Shown piece after piece: positions 5,701 through 15,501 of a stretch of 64,000 bases of DNA. A program made the translations under genes and the position numbers. Source of the stretch: Nitrospira sp. ND1. Its GTDB lineage: Bacteria; Nitrospirota; Nitrospiria; Nitrospirales; Nitrospiraceae. The notes under the pieces are model-generated. The model saw only the letters and a program-made list of their open reading frames with translations. It did not search any database and was not told the origin of the DNA. Where the stretch lies: contig NZ_FWEX01000005.1 of NCBI RefSeq assembly GCF_900170025.1, positions 295,073-359,072 on the forward strand, in the 5' to 3' direction. Within the stretch, counting starts at the first letter, position 1, and every line of letters starts with the position of its first letter.

Positions 5701-6480
5701 TTACGTCGTCGTCGCGTCGTCCATTCGCACGAGCCCCGCTTTCAGCTTCTCCTTGAGCCGGTAGGAGTGCCCGCGGATATTGATCGTGATCGCGTGGTGG
5801 AGCACCCGATCCAGGATCGCCGTCGCGAGCACCCGGTCCCCGAACACCTCCCCCCAGGCGCCGAAACTCTGGTTACTGGTCAGAATCATCGGCCCCTTCT
5901 CGTAGCGCCGTGAGATGAGTTGGAAAAACAAATTGGCGCCGGTCCGGTCGATCGGCAGATAGCCAATCTCATCGATGATCAGGAGGCGGGGAATCGTGTA
6001 CAGCTTCAGCTTGTCGTCCAGCCGATTCTCCGTGAGGGCCCGGGTGAGCGTCGCAATCATGGCGGCCGCGGTGGTGAACAACACGCGATAGCCCTGTTCG
6101 ATCGCTTTGAGCCCCAACCCAATCGCCAGATGGCTTTTGCCGACGCCGGGCGGCCCGAGCAGCACGACGTTCTCGCCGTGCTCGATGAAGTGGCAGGTCG
6201 CGACCTGCTGCAGGTGCTTCTTATCCAGCGAGGGTTGGTAGGTAAAGTCGAAGGCCTCCAGGCTCTTCACGAACGGGAAGCGGGCGAGACTGGTGCGCAT
6301 CGTGATGTTCTTTTCGGCCTTGGCGGCCACTTCTTCGCCCAGCACCTGGTCGAGGAAGTCGGCGTAGGAGAGGTCCTTGGCCGCCGCCTCTTGCAAGAGC
6401 GCATCGAGCCGCTCGCGGCTCTTCAAGAGCCGCAACCGCGTCAACTGTTCACGGAGCCGTTCCAGTTGTGCCGGGTTCAT
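5701..6480 (-). CDS. istB: IS21-family helper ATPase IstB
   Basis: AAA+ ATPase of 259 residues started at the ATG at 6480 (Shine-Dalgarno GGAGG 7 nt away). Visible motifs are Walker [11 protein letters not shown] (about residue 105), Walker [12 protein letters not shown] (about residue 170), and the S-N-Q-S-F sensor region. IstB assembles on target DNA and activates the IstA transposase. The start overlaps the istA stop in an ATGA, so translation is coupled. Length matches the family and no damage is seen. Confidence 0.93.
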
Positions 6481-7745
6481 CGCGGCACCTCCTGCGCCGT
6501 CGCGCTCCCGCACACCGCCTCATAGCACGCCAGATCCCGCACTTCGACCTCCGGCATCGCGCCCGGAGGCAGGGCCGGGGCCGTCCAAGTGGATCGGCGT
6601 TGGCGGGCGGTCCGTGCACTGGCGCCGGGGCCGTGCTCGGGTAGGATGCAGAATTGGTGGGTGCCGGGTAAGACCGGATGCCGCGCGACCTCCCGGTCGC
6701 GATGGAAGATGTACACGAGATCGCCCCGGCGCTGCACCTCGACCCGCTGGCCGATGAGGCGGAAGGGCACGGAGTAGCGGTTGGTCGCCAAGCTGACCAA
6801 ATAGTCCTCGGCCACGATCCGTGAGACACGGGCCTCCTGCTGGAAGCTGCGTTGCCCCGCCAGTGGCACCAGCTGCCCGCGTTCTCGCGCAAAGCGTGCA
6901 ATGGGGGGTTCGTGGGTCGTGCCGTGCAGCCGACAGTCTGCGATGGTGGCGTTCCATTCATCCAGCTGGGCTTGGAAGTCCACGAGATCGATGAACGTCC
7001 GGCCGGGCAGAAAATTCCGCTTCACATACTTCACACCTGATTCGACTTTGCCCTTGGTCTGCGCCCGGTACGGTCGACAGACCCGCGGCTCAAAGCCCCA
7101 ATAGTCGGCAAACGCTTTGAAGGTGGGATTCCAGATCCGCCGCCCCGTGTCATCCGCGTAACACACGGTGCGTGGGCGATCATAGAGATGCTCCCGGGTG
7201 TGGCCGCCGAAATGGGCGAAGGCCCGTTCATGGGATTCGAGAAACTGGGCGAGCCGCTCATCCGCACAGGCGTAATAGAACCCGCGGCGACTGAAGCCCA
7301 GCGTGAGCACGAACACGTGGACGACCTGCGGGCCGGCGCGAAAGGACACCAGGGCTTGGCCCCAATCAATCTGACTTTGCTGCCCCGGTGGGGTCTCAAA
7401 CCGGAGCAGGGCCCGGTCTGCGTGCCCCTGGACTTCGCGCAGCGGGGCCACACACCGCTTCACGGTCTCGTAACTGCCGGTATAGCCGCGGCTTGCCCGC
7501 AGCTCCTGATACAGAATCCGCGCCGAGTACCCGACCTGTGGGGCGCGGGTCTGCACAAAGTCGGCATGGGCGGTCAGGAGGGTCTCCGCGACCACCGCCC
7601 GCTGGTATGGGCGCCAGGTCGGCTGTCGCAGACTGCGGCGTACGGTCTTGCGATCCAGGTCCAATCGCCGCCCAATCTCAGAAATGGACACGCGCTCCTC
7701 ATCAAACAACCGCCGGATCTCCGCCCACCGTTCCTGATCCACCAT
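6477..7745 (-). CDS. istA: IS21-family transposase IstA
   Basis: A 422-residue transposase starting at the ATG at 7745, chosen because GGGGAGG stands 5 nt upstream; the frame continues further up. The N-terminus has a helix-turn-helix (I-S-E-I-G-R-R-L-D-L-D-R-K-T-V-R-R). The DDE catalytic core begins at Q-I-D-W-G-Q (first Asp), and the K-G-K-V-E-S-G-V-K-Y segment carries the final Glu. A C-terminal beta-rich region binds DNA. IstA and IstB together perform cut-and-paste or copy-out transposition. The reading frame is intact, so the element may still be active. Confidence 0.93.
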   Translation of the reverse strand: MVDQERWAEIRRLFDEERVSISEIGRRLDLDRKTVRRSLRQPTWRPYQRAVVAETLLTAHADFVQTRAPQVGYSARILYQELRASRGYTGSYETVKRCVAPLREVQGHADRALLRFETPPGQQSQIDWGQALVSFRAGPQVVHVFVLTLGFSRRGFYYACADERLAQFLESHERAFAHFGGHTREHLYDRPRTVCYADDTGRRIWNPTFKAFADYWGFEPRVCRPYRAQTKGKVESGVKYVKRNFLPGRTFIDLVDFQAQLDEWNATIADCRLHGTTHEPPIARFARERGQLVPLAGQRSFQQEARVSRIVAEDYLVSLATNRYSVPFRLIGQRVEVQRRGDLVYIFHRDREVARHPVLPGTHQFCILPEHGPGASARTARQRRSTWTAPALPPGAMPEVEVRDLACYEAVCGSATAQEVPR

Positions 7746-7972
7746 GCACGCCTCCCCAGGTTGGTCCACCTGGACGCGCATGATCGTCGTCTCGCTCGTC
7801 TCGTCAAGTCCCATCTCCCGCCTCCTTCTGGTAGAGGGTGGGGAGAATTCAATGACCACACCTGGGGATTATTGGATGACCGCTGACACTCGCGTGCCGT
7901 CATCGGCTGGGCGATGGGCCCGCGCTTGACCGGAGAGTTAACCGAACAGGCCCTCCGCATGGTGAAATATCT

Positions 7973-9094
7973 TGTTGAGAATGGGCCCCTCCACTGCGCT
8001 AGAGTCGCAGCGCCATTGAAGGAGGGACAGTATGTCGACGATCACGACCAAGGAGTTGACGACACTGAAGATCCCCAGACGGTATCACCACACCGTCAAG
8101 AGCCGCCTCGCCATCGTGCACTATGCAACGGACTTCGGGATCAAAGGAGCGGCCCGGCGGTTCGGCCTGGATCGGAAGACGGTCCGAGCGTGGCGCCGCC
8201 GCTTGCAGGCCGCCGGTCTCGTGGGCCTGGTTCCGCGCTACCCGCCGATCCGTGCACGCCGCATTGCGGAGTCGACCGTGGCGTTGATTGAACACGCCCG
8301 GCGCGATCTGATGTACGGGGCGGTCCGCACCCGGATTTGGCTCGAGCGTGTCCATCGGATCCGGGTCGCCGCGGCTACGATTCGCCGGATCTGCCACCGG
8401 CTCGGCTATCCATCGCTCCGCCGAAAACCCTCACGACGTCCTCGGCAACTAACGCTCTTCAGTCGCGAGCGACCGGGGGACTGTGTCCAGGTGGACGTCA
8501 AGGAAGTCAAAGTGGCAGGTGCGAAGTATTTCCAATACACCGCTATCGACGACTGCACGCGCTATCGGATTCTCCGTCTCTATCCCCGGAAAAATCATCA
8601 GACCAGTCATACCTTCTTCAGCACCCTTCGGGCCGCGCTCCCATTTCCCATCCGCAAAGTACAGGTCGACAACGGCGCAGAGTTCTCGCTCGCCTTTGCC
8701 CTCACGGTTCAACAGGCTGGGGTGCGGCTACGCTACATCAAGCCGCGATGTCCGGAGCAGAACGGCAAAGTCGAACGCAGTCATCGTGTTGATAACGAGG
8801 AGTTTTGGAGTCGGTCAACATTTGCCGGTTTCGCACCGGCGGCCGAAGCCGTACTGGCCTGGGAACACCGTTACAACCACGAGCGCTTCTCCATGGCCCT
8901 TAATGGCCTCACCCCGGCCGAGAAACTCGCAACATTCATGGCTCCGTCTCCGCTTCCGTCAGGCACCGTCCTCCCGCATCCGGTTCCCGCTTCGACCTCG
9001 ACCATGGACCCGCCGCCAATCGCGTGTCCTGAGCCACTTGTGCGACGCGTGCTCTGCCACAGTCACGACCTAAACCCTGGGGTCACTTCTTGAC
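7973..9094 (+). mobile_element. IS481-family insertion sequence
   Basis: The right end, read inward, is TGTCAAGAAGTGACCCC (ending at 9094, inside the transposase stop region). The left end TGTTGAGAATGGGCCCC at 7973 matches it at about 12 of 17 positions. The 1.12-kb length and the single transposase frame fit the IS481 family. Flanks do not show a matching target duplication. An 84-bp orphan segment (7889-7972) separates it from the IS21 element, and the truncated IS3-family copy follows it after 12 bp. Confidence 0.75.
8032..9093 (+). CDS. IS481-family DDE transposase
   Basis: A 353-residue transposase with a strong Shine-Dalgarno (GAAGGAGGGACAGT before ATG). The N-terminal helix-turn-helix contains G-A-A-R-R-F-G-L-D-R-K-T-V-R-A-W. 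The rve/DDE core shows C-V-Q-V-D-V-K (first Asp), V-Q-V-D-N-G-A-E-F (second Asp) and C-P-E-Q-N-G-K-V-E-R-S-H (Glu), with the usual spacing. The stop codon lies in the terminal inverted repeat, as is common in this family. The proline-rich C-terminal tail is longer than necessary for catalysis. No frameshift is visible. Confidence 0.88.
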   Translation: MSTITTKELTTLKIPRRYHHTVKSRLAIVHYATDFGIKGAARRFGLDRKTVRAWRRRLQAAGLVGLVPRYPPIRARRIAESTVALIEHARRDLMYGAVRTRIWLERVHRIRVAAATIRRICHRLGYPSLRRKPSRRPRQLTLFSRERPGDCVQVDVKEVKVAGAKYFQYTAIDDCTRYRILRLYPRKNHQTSHTFFSTLRAALPFPIRKVQVDNGAEFSLAFALTVQQAGVRLRYIKPRCPEQNGKVERSHRVDNEEFWSRSTFAGFAPAAEAVLAWEHRYNHERFSMALNGLTPAEKLATFMAPSPLPSGTVLPHPVPASTSTMDPPPIACPEPLVRRVLCHSHDLNPGVTS

Positions 9095-9106
9095 AAGTCA
9101 TTACAC

Positions 9107-9442
9107 ATGGCGCTCGCCACGCGGCAGCCCTCAGCAGGACTCCTGCATCACTCCGATCGCGGGGGGCAATATGCGGCAGGGGCCTACCAGCAGTTGCTCA
9201 CCACGTATGGCATCACGGCCAGCATGAGCCGCACCGGCAATTGCTGGGACAACGCCTGTGTCGAGAGCTTCTTCGGAACATTGAAGCGGGAACTCGTGTA
9301 CCATCGGCACTATGCCACACGAGCGGAAGCGAAACAGGACATCTTCGAATACATCGAGGTGTTCTACAATCGGACGCGTCGGCACTCGACCCTCGGCTAT
9401 GACTCCCCGGCCGAGTACGAAGCGAGAGCCGCAGTCGCGTAA
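9107..9442 (+). pseudogene. IS3-family transposase OrfB, C-terminal remnant
   Basis: 111 residues equal to the last third of an IS3-family OrfB: L-L-H-H-S-D-R-G-G-Q-Y (second catalytic Asp), then S-R-T-G-N-C-W-D-N-A-C-V-E-S-F-F (Glu), then the T-R-R-H-S-T-L-G-Y-x-S-P-x-x-Y-E terminal box. The N-terminal two thirds and OrfA are absent; homology begins abruptly at 9107, just after the IS481 right end. The remnant cannot encode an active transposase. Confidence 0.9.
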
Positions 9443-9489: not shown

Positions 9490-9534
9490 TGGAGCTGGCG
9501 AGAGGAATCGAACCCCCAACCGGCGGTTTACAAA
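9490..9534 (+). repeat. attL: copy of tRNA-Thr 3' half
   Basis: 45 bp identical to 15426-15470, running from the CCA end through the T arm to the anticodon loop, with no tRNA 5' half beyond it. The identity stops exactly at the anticodon loop (TTTACAAA then divergence), the expected crossover region of a tRNA-targeting tyrosine recombinase. Confidence 0.92.
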
Positions 9535-9586
9535 GCAGTCCTGAGCCTCTTTCCTCACATCACTCTACAGCATCAGATCCAATAGA

Positions 9587-9616
9587 ATCGCCTGATCCAC
9601 CATTGGGTTAGGCGAT
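9587..9616. repeat. Hairpin upstream of the Rep-like gene
   Basis: ATCGCCT at 9587-9593 and its exact complement AGGCGAT at 9610-9616 form a 7-bp stem with a 16-nt loop, immediately before the Rep-like reading frame and 50 bp inside the element. It is a candidate replication-origin or recombination structure; no nick site can be named from sequence alone. Confidence 0.4.
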
Positions 9617-9617
9617 A

Positions 9618-10685
9618 GTGCCATGTTGCGTGGAGTTGTCATTCAAAAGGGTAAAAAGGGCGGTTACGGTTACACTTTTGGTTACACTTTTTGAGGTGAG
9701 GTCGAGCGTGGACAGGACAGAGAAAGAACCAACGCAGCAATCGAGGCTGTCCCGCTCGGCCGGTGATGCCGGTGCGCGGGGTGGCGCAAGCCACCCGCGC
9801 ACGGGAGCCGCGCCAGCGGCATCTCCTAAACTTGACAGGAGGACATTTCTCGGCGAACACACCTGGCCTCACATCACACTACCTCCCGCAGGAAACGTCT
9901 GGTCCATCACGATTCATGATTTTGGAAAACAATGGGTTGAAATGTCTTGGGGAAGGTTAGATCCGATTCAAGGCAAGAGAGGAGAAAAAGGCGCATCGCG
10001 GAATAGAAAGATGAACGAGTCACGGGCACGAGGCCGGGCCAAAGGCACTATTCGGAAGAAATGCCTGACCATCGGAGCCGACCATCTGGTGACCTTGACC
10101 TACCGAGCGAATGTGAATGATCGAGACCGTGTCTTACACGATCTGGAACGGCTACGGCGAGCACTCTCGCGATCAGGCTGTTCCATGCCTTATGTCGCGG
10201 TCCTGGAACGGCAACAGCGTGGGGCGTTGCATCCGCATCTGGCGGTGAAGGGTTTTCGGGATGTGCGGCTATTGCGGCGGTGCTGGTACAAAATCGTCGG
10301 CAATGGTCAGGGACAAGTGAACGTCAGAGGGCCCCGGCCAGGAAGTTCACCGGTTAAACTTGCCCGTTACCTGTCGAAATACATCAGCAAGGATTTCGAC
10401 AATATGCCGCGTGAGTTTGAAGAGCACAGATACTTTTGCTCATTAGGCGTCAAGGTGCCGACGGAAAAACATGAGTTTATCCTGGACCGAAGGGCAACAG
10501 ACGTGGAAAGGAAAATGTACAGCCTCATGCGACGAGAGGCGTTACGTCGCGTTGGCGTCTGCTGCCGTCTCACGGAATGGATGGGTGGGGCAGGCACCTA
10601 CGGCTGGATGGCTGGTTTTGAAGATGCCTCAATCCGGACGGTTAGCAAAACTGATGAAAGTGTGCCGATTGGTCCAAGCCCGTGA
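9618..10685 (+). CDS. HUH-type rolling-circle Rep-like protein
   Basis: Up to 355 residues; the first 80 or so are low-complexity and the true start is uncertain (an AGGAGG at about 9836-9842 has no ATG at a normal distance). The C-terminal half carries the Rep signature: L-V-T-L-T-Y near residue 155, G-A-L-H-P-H-L-A-V-K-G near residue 200 (metal-binding His-x-His) and Y-L-S-K-Y-I-S-K near residue 250 (nucleophile tyrosine motif Y-x3-Y-x2-K). Such proteins nick an origin and start rolling-circle replication of plasmids, phages and satellites. It is the first gene inside the tRNA-Thr element and would let the excised circle replicate. Assignment is by motifs; substrate and origin are unknown. 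Confidence 0.65.
   Translation: MPCCVELSFKRVKRAVTVTLLVTLFEVRSSVDRTEKEPTQQSRLSRSAGDAGARGGASHPRTGAAPAASPKLDRRTFLGEHTWPHITLPPAGNVWSITIHDFGKQWVEMSWGRLDPIQGKRGEKGASRNRKMNESRARGRAKGTIRKKCLTIGADHLVTLTYRANVNDRDRVLHDLERLRRALSRSGCSMPYVAVLERQQRGALHPHLAVKGFRDVRLLRRCWYKIVGNGQGQVNVRGPRPGSSPVKLARYLSKYISKDFDNMPREFEEHRYFCSLGVKVPTEKHEFILDRRATDVERKMYSLMRREALRRVGVCCRLTEWMGGAGTYGWMAGFEDASIRTVSKTDESVPIGPSP
9662..9691. repeat. GGTTACACTTTT tandem repeats, left end
   Basis: GGTTAC at 9662 is followed by two 12-bp copies of GGTTACACTTTT (9668-9679, 9680-9691). The same decamer occurs twice with 12-bp spacing at the other end of the element (15337-15358). Paired motifs at both ends suit arm-type binding sites for the integrase or the HTH protein. 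Confidence 0.55.
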
Positions 10686-10828
10686 CAGTTCCACGCCGGA
10701 GCATGCTATAGCGCAGGCGTTCTGGGGGAAAGGGGGTGTCGAAGACTCCCCCTTCTACGAAACGTTTATATCGCATCGGTGTTATTGAATTAACCCTCTG
10801 CAACTAGTGAATCAATGTGAGCAGGCGA

Positions 10829-10857
10829 TTGAAGCGATTCGATTATCAGCATAAAAT
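10829..10857 (+). promoter_or_regulatory. Sigma-70-type promoter before the kinase-TPR pair
   Basis: TTGAAG (10829-10834) and TAAAAT (10852-10857) are separated by exactly 17 bp, 69 bp upstream of the kinase start. This is the best promoter in the 240-bp gap 10686-10925, which contains no gene. A weak Shine-Dalgarno AAGGA lies 11 nt before the kinase ATG. Confidence 0.45.
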
Positions 10858-10925
10858 GCCTTCAACCCTCTCCCTCAATACTTATTGTCTTTTGTATCAC
10901 TGTCATAAAAAGGATTGACTGACAT

Positions 10926-11984
10926 ATGAATGGTCGCCAAGTCCCCAACGTTGCCTCGACTCCGGCGGAGAATTTGGAAAATATGGATCTCGGCAACGGC
11001 TGGACTGTAGCAAGCAGAATCACACGTAAGAAAAGGAGCACGGGGGGGCACTTCTCCATCGGATACAAAGTCGTGGGTGCGCAGGGTAAAGAAGCTTTTA
11101 TGAAAGCATTGGACTTTTCGGCAGCTTCGCAGTCACAAGATCCTATCCGCGAGCTACAGAAGCTTACTGAGGCATATAACTATGAGCGTGATTTACTGAC
11201 GAAGTGTAAGAATCGTCGATTAAACCGTGTGATGGTACCCATCATCGATGGCACGATACATGTTCCGGGCTATGGAATTTATAGTCCGGTTTCCTACTTA
11301 ATATTTGAACTTGCTAAAGGCGACATAAGGGATGTCCTGTCAGATTTCTCAAAGTTTGACCTGGTGTGGTGCCTAAAGTCCCTTCATAACGTAGCAGTGG
11401 GGCTGCATCAATTACACAGTTCGGGAATTGCTCATCAGGACCTTAAGCCCTCCAATGTCTTATTCACCAACACTAACGAATCGAAACTCGCCGATCTGGG
11501 CAGGGCTACTGCTCAAGACCATCCTTCTCCTATCCATCATTATCAGGTGCCCGGAGATTTAGGCTATGCCCCAATTGATTTGAGTTATACCCCGACAACT
11601 GTCGATGGTTTCGAAAAGAGATTTTTGGCAGATTTGTACTTGATGGGAAGTCTATTCTTTTTCCATTTCACAGGTGTAGCAGCGGTCCATGCATTGCGAA
11701 TGAAGATTCAGGGAGTACCTTTGAGTAATACTTCGTTCCTGGCCGATCTTCCCTACCTTCAACACGCTTACGAAGAGACACTTGTTGATCTGAGGAGGGG
11801 AGTTGAGCCACTAGCCGGTGCTCTTGTAGAACCAATTATTCAGATCGTCAGGCAGCTTTGTGAGCCTGATCCTAAAAGGCGTGGTGACCCGCGATGGAAA
11901 GATTCCATAGTGCCTAGCTATAACATGGAAACCTATATTTCCAGACTAGACTTGCTCTGCAAAAAGGCCGAGTTGCTGCTATGA
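10926..11984 (+). CDS. Ser/Thr protein kinase (Hanks-type), element cargo
   Basis: A 352-residue kinase. Visible motifs: a glycine-loop-like S-T-G-G-H-F-S-I-G-Y (38-47), the ATP-anchoring lysine in A-F-M-K-A-L (Lys60), a likely C-helix Glu around 82-87, H-Q-D-L-K-P-S-N (170-177, catalytic Asp172, with HQD instead of HRD), and A-D-L-G (189-192, DLG replacing DFG, Asp190). All residues needed for catalysis appear present. There is no membrane segment or PASTA repeat, so it is a soluble kinase unlike housekeeping PknB. It overlaps the following TPR gene by 4 bp (ATGA), so the two are co-translated. Lower GC than the flagellar genes points to transfer. Position in a mobile element suggests a defence or element-protection role; that is inference. 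Confidence 0.8.
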   Translation: MNGRQVPNVASTPAENLENMDLGNGWTVASRITRKKRSTGGHFSIGYKVVGAQGKEAFMKALDFSAASQSQDPIRELQKLTEAYNYERDLLTKCKNRRLNRVMVPIIDGTIHVPGYGIYSPVSYLIFELAKGDIRDVLSDFSKFDLVWCLKSLHNVAVGLHQLHSSGIAHQDLKPSNVLFTNTNESKLADLGRATAQDHPSPIHHYQVPGDLGYAPIDLSYTPTTVDGFEKRFLADLYLMGSLFFFHFTGVAAVHALRMKIQGVPLSNTSFLADLPYLQHAYEETLVDLRRGVEPLAGALVEPIIQIVRQLCEPDPKRRGDPRWKDSIVPSYNMETYISRLDLLCKKAELLL

Positions 11985-13474
11985 GTCTAGGAGCACTAGA
12001 TAAAGATCGACAGGTAATCCCCCGATGGCATACCTACCCAATGGCGAGGTGGCTGGGAGTAACTGCGTCAGTTGAAGGTCAATTGCCAACGCCAGCATTG
12101 GGTGATGATTATCAGGAGAAGGTTGCCTCCTGGGAAAAATCAAAGCGTTTAGGTCACGCATCAGATCTGGTCGGCAATGCGCTTATATTGAATCAATTTG
12201 GTGATCAGAGCGCTATAGCTGCAGCGCAGTTCATTTTTGATAATAGCGAAAAAGCCTCTCCTCTTCTCTTGGAAGTTGCAGAAACGTTTCTTCGCCTATC
12301 GAAAAATGAATCGCTTGCACTCCCCAATGTCATAGTCCCAGATGAGAACAATCGCGTCCGAGAAGTAATTTCTAGATTGAAGGCAAGAACGAGAGAATAT
12401 CCAAGAAATCCAATTTTGTGGATGGATCTGGCATTTTATTACAGTGCACTAGGCCAAACCGAATTAGCCGATCGGGCTGTGACTGTCGCACTGTCATTGA
12501 ACCAGGAAAATCGGTATCTCCTGCGGTCTGGAGCGCGCTTCTTCATGCACCTGGGGACGCCAGATAAAGCACTTTATTATTTGCGCAAAAGCAACAGTGG
12601 ACAACAAGACCCTTGGATTGTGGCTGCTGAAATTGCCATCACAGATACCATCGAAGGGACCTCTCAGCGAATGAAAAGTGCGCGAACCATGCTTGAAAAT
12701 AAGTCCTACGCCAAGTTCCATCTTTCAGAGCTTGCCAGCGCATTAGGAACTATAGAATTAAAAAGCGGAGCACGAAAAAAGGGGAATAAGCTATTTGCTC
12801 TCGCCCTGGAAGAGCCCACCGAAAACACTCTGGCTCAGATAACCTTTCTGCAGAACCGTCACGGGGAACCGAGGGGAGCGATTAGTCCTGACCGCTCTGC
12901 TCAATCATTTGAAGCAGAGGCAATGTTAAAGGCGCATAACTATGATTTTGATGGCGCTCTAGATGCCTCAAAAAAATGGTTCGCGTATCAACCCTTCAGC
13001 TCCCGTCCTGCCGTACATGGATCGTACATAGCAGGCGTCGCTCTTGGAAAGTATGAAGAAGCCATAAAGGTGGCACGGATGGGACTTCTCTCGTCACCTA
13101 AGGACGTCATGCTTAAGAACAATCTTGCTTTTTCCTTAGCCTCTGTTGGGAGAGTGGAAGAAGCCAAGGGTGTCCTGGAAGGGATTGAAGAGGACAGACT
13201 TTCTGAAAGTGAAAAAAACACCCTAACCGCTACAAGAGGGGTCATATCTTTCCGTAGCGAAGACCATGCGGAAGGCAGAAGACTGTACGGCATCGCCATT
13301 GATGGCTTCAAGAAAGAGAAGAGCACAAGGTTAGAAACACTGGCGAAGTTTTTTTGGGCTAGAGAGGAAGAGCGGATAGGCTCGGGGCTTGGGAGGCAGA
13401 TGGCGGAAGAAGCGATAAAGAATGCCAAGAAACTTGATATACGAGAGTTGATGGGACACTTCGAAAAAAAATAG
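11981..13474 (+). CDS. TPR-repeat protein paired with the kinase
   Basis: A 497-residue soluble protein. TPR-like helical hairpins are visible around residues 140-200 (N-P-I-L-W-M-D-L-A-F-Y-Y-S-A-L-G-Q-T-E-L-A, then V-A-L-S-L-N) and 345-410 (A-G-V-A-L-G-K-Y-E-E-A-I-K-V-A, then N-N-L-A-F-S-L-A-S-V-G-R-V-E-E-A). The first 100 residues are not TPR and contain no catalytic motif that I recognise. The start lies inside the kinase stop (ATGA), so a tight stoichiometric link is expected. TPR proteins next to kinases often act as substrate adaptors or sensors. It could equally be a target phosphorylated by the kinase. Function is unknown. Confidence 0.7.
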   Translation: MSLGALDKDRQVIPRWHTYPMARWLGVTASVEGQLPTPALGDDYQEKVASWEKSKRLGHASDLVGNALILNQFGDQSAIAAAQFIFDNSEKASPLLLEVAETFLRLSKNESLALPNVIVPDENNRVREVISRLKARTREYPRNPILWMDLAFYYSALGQTELADRAVTVALSLNQENRYLLRSGARFFMHLGTPDKALYYLRKSNSGQQDPWIVAAEIAITDTIEGTSQRMKSARTMLENKSYAKFHLSELASALGTIELKSGARKKGNKLFALALEEPTENTLAQITFLQNRHGEPRGAISPDRSAQSFEAEAMLKAHNYDFDGALDASKKWFAYQPFSSRPAVHGSYIAGVALGKYEEAIKVARMGLLSSPKDVMLKNNLAFSLASVGRVEEAKGVLEGIEEDRLSESEKNTLTATRGVISFRSEDHAEGRRLYGIAIDGFKKEKSTRLETLAKFFWAREEERIGSGLGRQMAEEAIKNAKKLDIRELMGHFEKK

Positions 13475-13630
13475 TGACTGTGGTTAAGGTTGTCGTTTCT
13501 GATGAACCCTCCTTCTTTCTCTCCTGACGCGTTTCTCCCCTATATCTCTGCATAACGCTTTGGCAGCATATCGCTCAAGCGCGATCACGGACTGTAGTAA
13601 ATGGCTGATATAAAAGCCAAGTTTTGACAA

Positions 13631-13685
13631 TTGACTTTATTATAGCAGGCGGCTATAAACACATTATTATAACGGAGGGCTATAA
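13631..13685 (+). promoter_or_regulatory. Promoter with two palindromic operators for the RHH gene
   Basis: TTGACT (13631-13636) and TATAAA (13654-13659) with a 17-bp spacer form a good promoter; a second TTGACA lies at 13624. Two copies of the palindrome TTATARC-N5-GCTATAA are present: 13640-13658, covering the -10 box, and 13667-13685, covering the GGAGG ribosome site up to the ATG. They are 27 bp apart. Repressor binding there would block both transcription and access to the start. This layout fits autoregulation by the ribbon-helix-helix protein encoded immediately downstream. Confidence 0.7.
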
Positions 13686-13985
13686 ATGAGTCCTAAGCCT
13701 AAAAACACGCCGCACCGAGTATTGCTATCGTTGCCCACAGATCTCTACGAGACGATTTCACGCGTATCGGCTGCTATGGAGAAGCCGCGAGCCGAAATCA
13801 TCCGCGATCTACTAAGTGAACAGCAGCCAATTCTCGAACACATGGCCACGATGTTGGAACAGGCAAAAGCGGGAAAGCTTGATCAGGCTATGAAGGGATG
13901 GAAGAAAATGACCGGGGAGGCGTTAAAGGGCCTTGGAGTAATCATGAATCCGCCTGATCTTAAGAAATCCAAACTAAGATCCTAG
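13686..13985 (+). CDS. Ribbon-helix-helix (CopG/Arc-type) regulator
   Basis: A 99-residue protein. Residues 10-45 follow the RHH pattern: a short beta strand R-V-L-L-S-L-P, then L-Y-E-T-I-S-R-V-S-A-A-M, then R-A-E-I-I-R-D-L-L. The rest is a charged helical tail, possibly for oligomerisation. RHH proteins repress replication, toxin-antitoxin or mobile-element genes by binding palindromes with the beta strand. Two such palindromes overlap its own promoter and ribosome site. No toxin-like gene follows directly, so a copy-number or integrase-control role is more likely than a toxin-antitoxin pair. Confidence 0.7.
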   Translation: MSPKPKNTPHRVLLSLPTDLYETISRVSAAMEKPRAEIIRDLLSEQQPILEHMATMLEQAKAGKLDQAMKGWKKMTGEALKGLGVIMNPPDLKKSKLRS

Positions 13986-14034
13986 CGGCGTTATCGGACG
14001 TCAGTGTGTAAAAACCAGATTTAAACGGAAGGGG

Positions 14035-14322
14035 GTGATGGAAATGTCAGAGGAAGTATTCAAACGGCTGTATTCAGTCAGAGAGGCGGCTCGATACCTG
14101 GGTATCAGCCAGTGGGCGGTTCGGCATCTCAATTGGTCCAGCAAACTGCCCTGTGTACGGCAGGGACGACGAGTCCTATTCGATATTTACGATATGGACC
14201 GGTTCATCGAAAACAACAAGAGGGGGGGACATCATGGGGATGCTTTATCGACGCAAGAAACGCGATCCGACGACAGGGACTTTAGCCGAACAGGGCCCAT
14301 ATTGGATGAAATATTACGTTGA
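14035..14322 (+). CDS. HTH excisionase-like protein
   Basis: Up to 95 residues; GTG at 14035, ATG at 14038 or ATG at 14044 could each start, all close behind GAAGGGGG. The N-terminal 60 residues contain L-Y-S-V-R-E-A-A-R-Y-L-G-I-S-Q-W-A-V-R-H-L, then R-Q-G-R-R-V-L-F-D-I-Y-D-M-D-R-F-I, the classical HTH_17/Xis winged-helix pattern. The gene overlaps the 5' part of the integrase gene by about 90 bp in another frame, so its last 30 residues may be dispensable. It probably directs excision or regulates the integrase. Confidence 0.72.
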   Translation: MMEMSEEVFKRLYSVREAARYLGISQWAVRHLNWSSKLPCVRQGRRVLFDIYDMDRFIENNKRGGHHGDALSTQETRSDDRDFSRTGPILDEILR

Positions 14323-15490
14323 CGGCAGACCTATCCAAGAAAGCACGAGGACCAGTGATAAGGAGCGAGCCAAACGGATTCTTAAAATTAAGGAAGGGGA
14401 GATCGCTGCAGGGCTGTATCGTGGGCCCAATATCGACAGAACACGCTATGAGGACCTGGCTGAGCTCGTGAGACAAGATTACGAATTAAACAAGCGTAAG
14501 ACTGGACGTCGGGTCAGTGAATATCAGCACCATTTAGAACCATACTTCCGAAAGATGCGGGTGTCCGCCATCACCACTGAGCGAATCAAAGCCTATATCG
14601 TGAAACGCCAAGGAGAAGGCGCGGCAAACGCCACCATCAACCGGGAAACTGGATTTCTGAAGCGTATGTTTCGGATGGGCTTTCAACAAACACCACAACT
14701 GGTCGTTCGGGTTCCCCATATTCCCCAACTCAAGGAATACAACATTCGATCAGGATTCTTTGAGCATGAGGATTTTCTCGCGCTTCGAGGCGCCTTACCT
14801 GACTATGCCCAGGTGGCTGCAACACTCGCCTACTACAGCGGGATGCGAATGGGGGAGGTCTGCTCGCTGCAATGGCGGCAAATCAATTGGACAGAAGGGA
14901 AGCTGTTCCTGCAGGCCCAGGACACCAAAACCAATACGCCCAGAGTTCTCTATCTAACAGGCGATCTCTACCGGGTGCTGTTGGCCTGGAAGACACGCTG
15001 CGACCACAAATGGCCTGTTTGTCCCTGGATCTGCCATCGTGGAGGAATTCGCCTACAAAGTTTGAAGCATTCTTGGCGGAAGGCGTGCGAGACGGTTGGC
15101 CTCGGCGGGATGGTGAAAGACGAGAAGAAAAAGCACTTGGTGTGGGTAGGTAGAATCCCACATGACTTCCGTCGTACGGCTGTCCGCAATATGGTGCGGG
15201 CCGGAGTGCCGGAGAAGGTGGCCATGTCCATTTCCGGCCATAAGACTCGAAGCGTGTTTGACCGGTACAACATTGTGAACGAACGGGACCTCGAACAGGC
15301 CGCGCGCTCACTCTCTGCGTACTTTGAGCGTCAGACGGTTACACTTACGGTTACACTCGCAGAACTGCGAGGGGAGAGTAGTGGCTCTGTAAGCCGCCAA
15401 CCGGTTGATTCGTCAGTGGAATTTATGGAGCTGGCGAGAGGAATCGAACCCCCAACCGGCGGTTTACAAAACCGCTGCTCTGCCAATTGA
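14234..15490 (+). CDS. Tyrosine recombinase (phage-type integrase)
   Basis: A 418-residue integrase from the ATG at 14234, chosen for the AGGGGGG 5 nt upstream; the frame opens at 14153. The N-terminus is an arm-binding segment with Y-W-M-K-Y-Y-V-D-G, then a SAM-like core-binding domain. The catalytic domain shows S-G-M-R-M-G-E (first Arg), H-D-F-R-R-T (His and second Arg), S-G-H-K-T and F-D-R-Y-N (nucleophile Tyr). The 3' end of the gene runs into the tRNA-Thr repeat, so the last residues are encoded by the att site, as usual for tRNA-targeting integrases. It should catalyse integration between the tRNA and the element. Confidence 0.9.
   Translation: MGMLYRRKKRDPTTGTLAEQGPYWMKYYVDGRPIQESTRTSDKERAKRILKIKEGEIAAGLYRGPNIDRTRYEDLAELVRQDYELNKRKTGRRVSEYQHHLEPYFRKMRVSAITTERIKAYIVKRQGEGAANATINRETGFLKRMFRMGFQQTPQLVVRVPHIPQLKEYNIRSGFFEHEDFLALRGALPDYAQVAATLAYYSGMRMGEVCSLQWRQINWTEGKLFLQAQDTKTNTPRVLYLTGDLYRVLLAWKTRCDHKWPVCPWICHRGGIRLQSLKHSWRKACETVGLGGMVKDEKKKHLVWVGRIPHDFRRTAVRNMVRAGVPEKVAMSISGHKTRSVFDRYNIVNERDLEQAARSLSAYFERQTVTLTVTLAELRGESSGSVSRQPVDSSVEFMELARGIEPPTGGLQNRCSAN
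15337..15358. repeat. GGTTACACTT repeats, right end
   Basis: GGTTACACTT at 15337-15346 and GGTTACACTC at 15349-15358 lie in the 3' part of the integrase gene, about 70 bp from the right att copy, in the same orientation as the left-end copies at 9668-9691. They are candidate integrase arm sites. Confidence 0.5.
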
Positions 15491-15501
15491 GCTACGCCAG
15501 C
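15426..15501 (-). tRNA. tRNA-Thr (anticodon TGT)
   Basis: A full 76-nt cloverleaf on the minus strand: acceptor GCTGGCG pairs with CGCCAGC, D arm GCTCAATTGGCAGAGC, anticodon stem AGCGGT/ACCGC-type around loop TTTGTAA (anticodon TGT), T arm GGGGGTTCGATTCCTCT, and an encoded CCA at 15428-15426. Its 3' half is identical to the copy at 9490-9534, so it was regenerated by the integrated element and should be functional. Confidence 0.95.

What the first reader, a model, noticed from the sequence alone, without database searches (positions are those of the whole stretch)
10926..13474. Soluble protein kinase and TPR protein as coupled cargo of a tRNA-Thr integrative element
A catalytically complete kinase (Lys60, HQD Asp172, DLG Asp190) and a 497-residue TPR protein overlap as ATGA, have their own promoter, are AT-richer than the chromosome and are the only non-mobility genes in the element. 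Known bacterial defence systems use protein kinases (for example Stk2 and the Pgl/BREX kinase PglW), but I do not recognise this two-gene architecture. It could be a defence, superinfection-exclusion or host-manipulation module. This is the best candidate for an undescribed system here.
Basis: partly seen in the sequence, partly recalled or inferred. Interest (0 to 1): 0.85.

Follow-up and report, generated by a model that had tools for sequence, protein, structure and literature searches.

The report
Kinase-TPR phage-defence candidate on mini-element
A small mobile DNA element carries a two-gene kinase and repeat-protein pair that is already catalogued, but not yet tested in print as far as I could find, as a candidate anti-virus defence of bacteria; some sister elements carry known defence genes in the same slot.

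Summary
The genes are real: kinase 10926-11984 (352 aa) and TPR protein 11981-13474 (497 aa), overlapping by 4 bases. They are the only cargo of a 5.94-kb integrative element (exact 45-bp repeats 9490-9534/15426-15470, tRNA-Thr, rolling-circle Rep, RHH, Xis, Int). The architecture is not undescribed: PADLOC-DB lists it as candidate PDC-M71 (M71A E=1.1e-122; M71B E=5.4e-157). I found no paper naming it; most PDCs are described as unvalidated. New here: the TPR gene follows the kinase in 80 of 82 testable loci; catalytic residues are kept in 80 of 80 aligned kinases; the proteins are co-inherited (r=0.82). The same chassis recurs in related genomes with other cargo, twice defence-like (PD-T4-2; an Avs4-like protein), elsewhere not recognisably so. 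Homologues lie near type I RM, pAgo, CBASS, DrmD, HerA and SIR2 genes, beside phage portal genes, and in E. coli near AbiP2 and ThsB. Best reading: phosphorylation-based anti-phage module, TPR protein as sensor, kinase as effector. The mechanism is inferred; a fused structure prediction left the interface unresolved.

The parts
9490..9534 (.). left attachment repeat, 45 bp, exact copy of the 3' part of tRNA-Thr
9618..10685 (+). rolling-circle replication initiator (Rep); true start probably internal
   Evidence: PF23343 E 1.2e-14; phrog_3419 E 2.4e-55; 31.6% identical over 80% of the query to an Inoviridae Rep
10926..11984 (+). protein kinase, PDC-M71A
   Evidence: PF00069; PDLC04780 PDC-M71A E 1.1e-122 over 11-350; catalytic residues
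11981..13474 (+). TPR superhelix protein, PDC-M71B
   Evidence: PDLC04781 PDC-M71B E 5.4e-157 over 7-484; AlphaFold model pLDDT 92.1, pTM 0.87
13686..13985 (+). ribbon-helix-helix protein of the element chassis
   Evidence: PF01402; 92-99% identical in seven sister elements
14035..14322 (+). excisionase-like HTH protein
   Evidence: PF12728; TIGR01764
14153..15490 (+). tyrosine integrase (ORF as listed; its end runs into the tRNA repeat)
   Evidence: PF00589 E 1e-16; phrog_1 E 2.2e-49
15426..15470 (.). right attachment repeat inside tRNA-Thr
15426..15501 (-). tRNA-Thr (TGT), integration site

Best explanation
The pair is a PDC-M71 module, most likely an anti-phage system carried as swappable cargo by a small rolling-circle integrative element. 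Proposed mechanism: M71A (a kinase with a complete catalytic set) and M71B (a TPR superhelix) work as a coupled pair. M71B holds the kinase in check or directs it, and binds a phage-made protein or peptide in its superhelical groove. The kinase then phosphorylates host (or phage) proteins and stops the infection, probably by growth arrest or cell death. Shown: the two genes, their coupling, the family membership, the catalytic residues, co-inheritance, the predicted fold of the TPR protein, the defence-rich and mobile company of homologues. Inferred: kinase activity, antiviral activity, that the TPR protein is the sensor and the kinase the effector, its targets, and abortive infection.
For: Full-length PADLOC matches for both proteins. 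TPR gene follows in 80 of 82 loci with at least 600 bp downstream; a start giving a 4-base overlap in 40 of 78 loci, window included. Kinase and TPR distances correlate, r=0.82 over 75 loci, maximum of 1000 permutations 0.13. K60, E87, N177, D190, G192, D236, R319 kept in 80 of 80 aligned kinases. Sister elements with the same chassis carry PD-T4-2 A and B (E 5.1e-153, 3.1e-50) plus a TIR match (2.1e-11) in L200, and an Avs4-like STAND protein (1.2e-11, partial) in L197, a second element of the same genome. Next to homologues: PLD and MrfA-Zn-domain genes, HerA, SIR2, RloB, type I S subunit; within two genes: pAgo, oligonucleotide cyclase, HmaA, DrmD, type I MTase, type I S subunits and MAD5. 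In viral contig L088 the pair lies beside portal and terminase, in L089 beside a portal-like gene (below Pfam's cut-off). In E. coli locus L214 the pair (M71A 2.6e-94, M71B 5.8e-103) lies near AbiP2 (1.7e-195) and ThsB (7.1e-125). Rare and patchy: 3 of 198 genomes of the own phylum, own genome included; 3 of 199 in the family of a Rhizobium, that genome included.
Against: No functional test. The slot is not reserved for defence: cargo proteins scanned from L198 (1), L202 (1) and L203 (2) and one of four from L200 had no PADLOC match, and L198, L199, L201 and L202 carry lipoprotein-like genes by eye. The neighbourhood control (140 genes further away in the same loci) also held defence genes (PglX, RmrA, HEC-06, SoFic), so closeness adds little beyond 'in an island'. 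The fused kinase-TPR model has pTM 0.65, in my estimate about what two well folded but freely placed parts of this size would give, so a stable complex is not shown. TPR fold matches are generic.
Confidence: 0.6

Rival explanations
1. Toxin-antitoxin-like maintenance module: the kinase is toxic and the TPR protein its antidote; the pair stabilises the element and any phage protection is a by-product.
For: Overlapping two-gene arrangement; small HTH regulators recognised by eye as the next gene upstream in 12 of 89 homologous loci and in L115; kinase-based toxin-antitoxin defence exists (KKP, PMC11341870, abstract and section 11; DS-6, PMC13092281, passages).
Against: Weak only: the partner is large for an antidote, and the interrupted copies do not decide (four broken kinases, L030, L046, L054, L066, still have the TPR gene; L004 and L059 have neither whole).
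Confidence: 0.2
2. Regulatory module of the mobile element: phosphorylation controls excision, replication or host silencing of this and co-resident elements.
For: KKP does this for Pf prophages through MvaU (PMC11341870 abstract); the element's Rep is distantly inovirus-like.
Against: Seven sister elements with 92-99% identical RHH and 82-93% identical Rep lack the pair, and the pair occurs with unrelated vehicles: plasmids, viral contigs, defence islands.
Confidence: 0.08
3. Partner of ribonucleotide reductase: the kinase-TPR pair acts on dNTP synthesis.
For: An RNR large-subunit gene lies upstream on the same strand in 8 of 89 loci, as the next called ORF in six and behind one small ORF in L035 and L084, scattered on a quick kinase tree (6 changes, at least 4 forced by well supported branches). 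The RNRs differ: the class II N-terminal domain is present in L022, L036 and L051 and absent in L019, L035 and L059.
Against: The 3' flank of nrdJ is a variable spot in 30 Rhizobiaceae and 30 Acidobacteria loci, and only the starting genome of each set carries the kinase there, so a shared insertion spot explains it.
Confidence: 0.05

Closest known systems
PDC-M71 (PADLOC-DB 2.0.0 candidate)
   Same: Both proteins match full length, adjacent on one strand
   Different: No difference in architecture found; this copy sits alone on a mini-element with a rolling-circle Rep
KKP (kinase-kinase-phosphatase; PMC11341870, abstract, section 11 and passages)
   Same: Ser/Thr kinase defence on mobile elements
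   Different: One kinase and no phosphatase recognised in the element; TPR protein instead
DS-6 (HipA-related kinase with a DUF3037/DUF1829 protein; PMC13092281, passages)
   Same: Two-gene defence whose kinase residue is needed for protection
   Different: HipA-type kinase and a different partner; not compared by sequence here
Stk2 of staphylococci (as described in PMC11341870, passage)
   Same: Eukaryote-like kinase
   Different: Stk2 is a single host-encoded gene; here a two-gene pair
PD-T4-6 and MADS MAD6 (PADLOC models)
   Same: Kinase domain similarity (best E 5.3e-15 and 1.3e-17)
   Different: Only part of the kinase matches (115-252 and 124-215); no MADS partner genes in the element
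AICE-type integrative elements (recalled; weak pSAM2 RepSA match, below cut-off)
   Same: Rep, Xis and Int at a tRNA
   Different: No TraB-like translocase gene recognised in the element

Membership tests
PDC-M71 | M71A kinase, full-length match | tested here: met
   PDLC04780 E 1.1e-122, residues 11-350 of 352
PDC-M71 | M71B TPR protein, full-length match | tested here: met
   PDLC04781 E 5.4e-157, residues 7-484 of 497
PDC-M71 | the two genes adjacent on one strand (rule inferred; PADLOC's system definition was not seen) | tested here: met
   4-base overlap
PDC-M71 | company of other defence genes (homologues) | tested here: met
   the further-away control is also positive
PDC-M71 | antiviral activity | not testable with these tools
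   no assay; no paper found
KKP | two kinases and a phosphatase | tested here: not met
   ORF inventory and Pfam of the element
Stk2 / PD-T4-6 | full-length match as a single-gene system | tested here: not met
   only part of the kinase matches PD-T4-6; the Stk2 model matches residues 124-253 of the E. coli homologue and is not among the 25 of 33 families shown for the window kinase
MADS | MAD6 with the other MADS proteins | tested here: not met
   MAD6 match over residues 124-215 only; no other such gene recognised in the element
AICE | TraB/FtsK-type transfer gene | tested here: not met
   ORF inventory 9490-15470 and Pfam
RRNPP-type peptide receptor | TPR domain binding a short peptide | tested here: inconclusive
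   Rap, AimR and NprR among the fold matches, Z 14-17, mixed with other TPR proteins

The most novel reading that the evidence does not exclude
M71B is a phage-peptide or phage-protein receptor that gates an immune kinase, and the kinase shuts down a core host process such as dNTP synthesis (hinted at by its repeated placement behind ribonucleotide reductase genes of different make-up). This would be a sensor-kinase immune pathway unlike Stk2, PglW and KKP.
Probability: 0.08. Interest if true: 0.75.

Novelty: new member of a known kind. Interest (0 to 1): 0.42.

Why it matters
PDC-M71 is found in many phyla but, as far as I could find, is an untested candidate. The sister-element comparison gives independent support for it: one small chassis, one slot, and in two sisters PD-T4-2 or an Avs4-like protein in place of the kinase-TPR pair. 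A natural E. coli copy makes it directly testable in K-12. If active, it adds a kinase with a dedicated TPR partner to the few phosphorylation-based defences.

Tried and rejected
RNR partnership: looked striking (8 of 89 loci), then judged a shared insertion spot after reading up to 1.5 kb downstream of nrdJ in 30 Rhizobiaceae and 30 Acidobacteria loci (variability judged by eye; a few Acidobacteria share the same next gene; kinase absent except in the starting genomes). A third conserved gene next to the pair: none found; the largest neighbour clusters are recombinases in 11 loci each. Solved-structure search by sequence: the 60 best of 1012 for the kinase are ordinary kinases, and 9 weak ones for the TPR protein. 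Phage records: no match to the TPR protein; an enterobacterial M71A gave 15 weak matches, 23-28% identical and none covering 80%. Fold matches to IFT, PEX5, Rap, AimR are too generic to name a ligand. First alignments for the fused model placed part of the TPR rows on the kinase and were not used; tests led to A11. The cargo of L204 and L206-L212 was not scanned with profiles.

Rows dropped: 7 loci for under 600 bp downstream (L015, L033, L051, L055, L063, L073, L084); L091 and L092 had no kinase-profile match; 10 of 90 kinase rows, short, cut or interrupted (L004, L030, L033, L042, L046, L051, L054, L059, L066, L084), were not in the alignment behind the 80-of-80 count. The search patterns contain the AH-x-D-x-KP and GG-x-x-S motifs, so their conservation is partly by selection. 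Of 109 relatives found, 80 were kept by the tool.

Full report
What is there. Two ORFs at 10926-11984 (352 aa) and 11981-13474 (497 aa) overlap by four bases. The first is a protein kinase by Pfam, the second a TPR protein. They lie between a rolling-circle Rep and an RHH-Xis-Int cassette, inside exact 45-bp repeats 9490-9534 and 15426-15470; the right repeat is the 3' part of tRNA-Thr. The repeats are 5936 bp apart. The pair has 47.4% G+C against 58.9% over 17-64 kb of the window. The claimed own promoter is not above chance.

It is already catalogued. PADLOC-DB 2.0.0 has models for exactly this pair: PDC-M71A (E 1.1e-122, residues 11-350) and PDC-M71B (E 5.4e-157, residues 7-484). PDCs are candidates from a 'guilt-by-embedding' approach and most lack experimental validation; I read that in passages of PMC12988326. 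The source preprint (Payne et al. 2024) is not held; I saw only its entry in a reference list (PMC13092281, passages). A search for 'PDC-M71' found 0 papers; one for tetratricopeptide, protein kinase, anti-phage, two-gene and defense system found 2, both on fungi by title; one for TPR, Hanks-type kinase, phage and abortive infection found none.

The pair is a unit. A scan of one genome per species found 109 relatives of the kinase and kept 80, from many phyla; viral contigs gave 7, of which 5 matched the kinase profile; four plasmid loci were opened of 18 plasmid records matched. Of these 89 loci, 82 have at least 600 bp downstream and 80 of these carry the TPR gene; the exceptions are a plasmid copy cut short next to an IS6 gene (L004) and a broken kinase (L059). 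The query alignment held kinases only, so the TPR gene was not selected for, though all four seed loci had it. A start giving a 4-base overlap exists in 40 of 78 loci, window included. Kinase and TPR distances correlate at r=0.82 over 75 loci (1000 permutations, maximum 0.13). In 80 of 80 aligned kinases K60, E87, H170, D172, K174, N177, D190, G192, D236 and R319 are unchanged; 10 of 90 rows, short, cut or interrupted, were left out, and the part with H170, D172 and K174 is biased by the search pattern. The TPR protein has a conserved N-terminal segment: R10 in 78, P14 in 79, R15 in 64 and W16 in 75 of 79.

The element is a vehicle with a cargo slot. Rep relatives occur in 18 of 245 genomes drawn from the window's phylum, own genome included. 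I fetched 16 regions. Seven (L197-L203) have the whole chassis Rep-RHH-Xis-Int, with RHH 92-99%, Rep 82-93% and integrase 43-88% identical. None of the 16 regions has a match to the TPR protein or more than a weak 47-residue match to the kinase (L210). tRNA-Thr is predicted next to the integrase end in L197, L199, L201, L202 and L203, not in L198 and L200. Flanking repeats of 45-48 bp were found in L197, L198, L199, L201 and L202 and also in L204, but not in L200 (its contig starts 318 bases before the Rep match) or L203; L209 has only 15 bp. Sizes run from 5.2 to 9.4 kb. The slot of L200 holds PD-T4-2 A and B and a protein with a TIR match; that of L197, in the window's own genome, a 1780-aa protein with STAND-type NTPase matches and a partial Avs4 match (E 1.2e-11). 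L205, which has the Rep but no detected RHH, Xis or Int, has a PDC-M48B match. Against this, the cargo proteins scanned from L198, L202 and L203 and one of four from L200 had no PADLOC match, and L198, L199, L201 and L202 carry lipoprotein-like genes (by eye). So of the eight chassis, window included, three carry cargo that PADLOC recognises (window, L197, L200); L199 and L201 were not scanned.

Company elsewhere. Near neighbours (within two genes; 241 ORFs of at least 120 aa, E at most 1e-20, the 25 top families shown per call) match pAgo, type I MTase, oligonucleotide cyclase, HmaA, DrmD, PDC-S01 and PDC-S02, and type I specificity subunits, type I MTase and MAD5. More families match there (142 of 123 ORFs scanned, 137 of 118) than among 140 ORFs six or more places away (57), but the models are redundant, so these are not gene counts, and the control also holds PglX, RmrA, HEC-06 and SoFic. 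This shows islands, not tight linkage. Pfam confirmed a type I S subunit (L010), HerA (L046), SIR2 (L054), RloB (L034) and a PLD gene (L017) beside the pair. In viral contig L088 the pair abuts a portal gene with a gpP-like terminase next; in L089 a portal-like match is below Pfam's cut-off. Two clusters of serine- and tyrosine-recombinase-like proteins (named by eye) occur within 10 kb in 11 loci each, 22 different loci of 89. In E. coli 13 of 5426 complete genomes, several of them near-copies, match the kinase of a Citrobacter locus over 255 bases. I opened two: in both a TPR gene follows and a RepL gene and a TIR gene are near; L213 also has a MobQ relaxase and L214 a reverse transcriptase matching AbiP2. 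PADLOC named the L214 pair M71A and M71B. M71A is rare: 3 of 198 genomes of the phylum, own included, 3 of 199 in the family of a Rhizobium, that one included.

A tempting link, weighed. In 8 of 89 loci a ribonucleotide reductase large-subunit gene lies just upstream, in six as the next called ORF and in two (L035, L084) behind one small ORF. Pfam confirmed it in the six tested, and a genome search found such a gene in all eight genomes; in 5 of 8 it is the only such place found. On a quick kinase tree the label needs 6 changes, at least 4 forced by well supported branches. But the 3' flank of nrdJ is variable in 30 Rhizobiaceae and 30 Acidobacteria loci, and only the starting genome of each set has the kinase there. 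I read this as a common insertion spot; the functional reading stays open at low odds.

Structure. The TPR protein is predicted with pLDDT 92.1 and pTM 0.87, essentially all helical; matches are TPR superhelices in general, peptide receptors (PEX5, Rap, AimR, NprR) among them. The in-frame kinase-TPR reading of L025 folds well in both parts (pLDDT 91.3), but pTM 0.65 leaves their relative placement open; its kinase part rested on few alignment rows.

Mechanism. A kinase with complete catalytic residues, an obligate TPR partner and no third conserved gene fits a sensor-effector pair: the TPR protein recognises a phage product and the kinase acts. KKP shows that kinase toxicity can stop phages and that a phage replication protein can be the trigger (PMC11341870: abstract, section 11 and passages seen), but it has two kinases and a phosphatase, so this is not KKP. 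DS-6 shows a two-gene system whose kinase residue is needed (PMC13092281, passages). Odds: PDC-M71 membership about 0.97; antiviral function about 0.75; TPR sensor with kinase effector about 0.45.

Noticed in passing
L197-L203 (sister elements); L197 lies in the window's own genome, G000:C6:970500-983500: A family of Rep-slot-RHH-Xis-Int elements (5.2-9.4 kb where both repeats were found), mostly at tRNA-Thr, with different cargo, including PD-T4-2 and an Avs4-like protein. Two paper searches gave no description of it.
   Followed up: partly
L117-L146 and L167-L196: The 3' flank of the ribonucleotide reductase gene nrdJ is a variable accessory spot in Rhizobiaceae and Acidobacteria, with toxin-antitoxin-like, nuclease-like and methyltransferase-like genes by eye.
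   Followed up: partly
L213, L214: E. coli loci with the pair, RepL and ThsB-like TIR genes, MobQ (L213) and an AbiP2-like reverse transcriptase (L214).
   Followed up: yes
window 9666-9688 and 15335-15357: A short direct repeat near both ends of the element, possibly integrase arm-binding sites.
   Followed up: no
window 5701-9442: Transposase-like genes (two confirmed by Pfam domains, the others by eye) abut the left end of the element.
   Followed up: no
L059:2401-6582: The ribonucleotide reductase beside a broken kinase copy carries intein and LAGLIDADG matches.
   Followed up: no
L003, L009, L023, L024, L031, L032, L040, L062, L070, L079, L081, L086 and L115: Small HTH regulators (XRE-, MarR- and MerR-like by eye, a few on the opposite strand) are the next gene upstream of the kinase; none in the window.
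   Followed up: no
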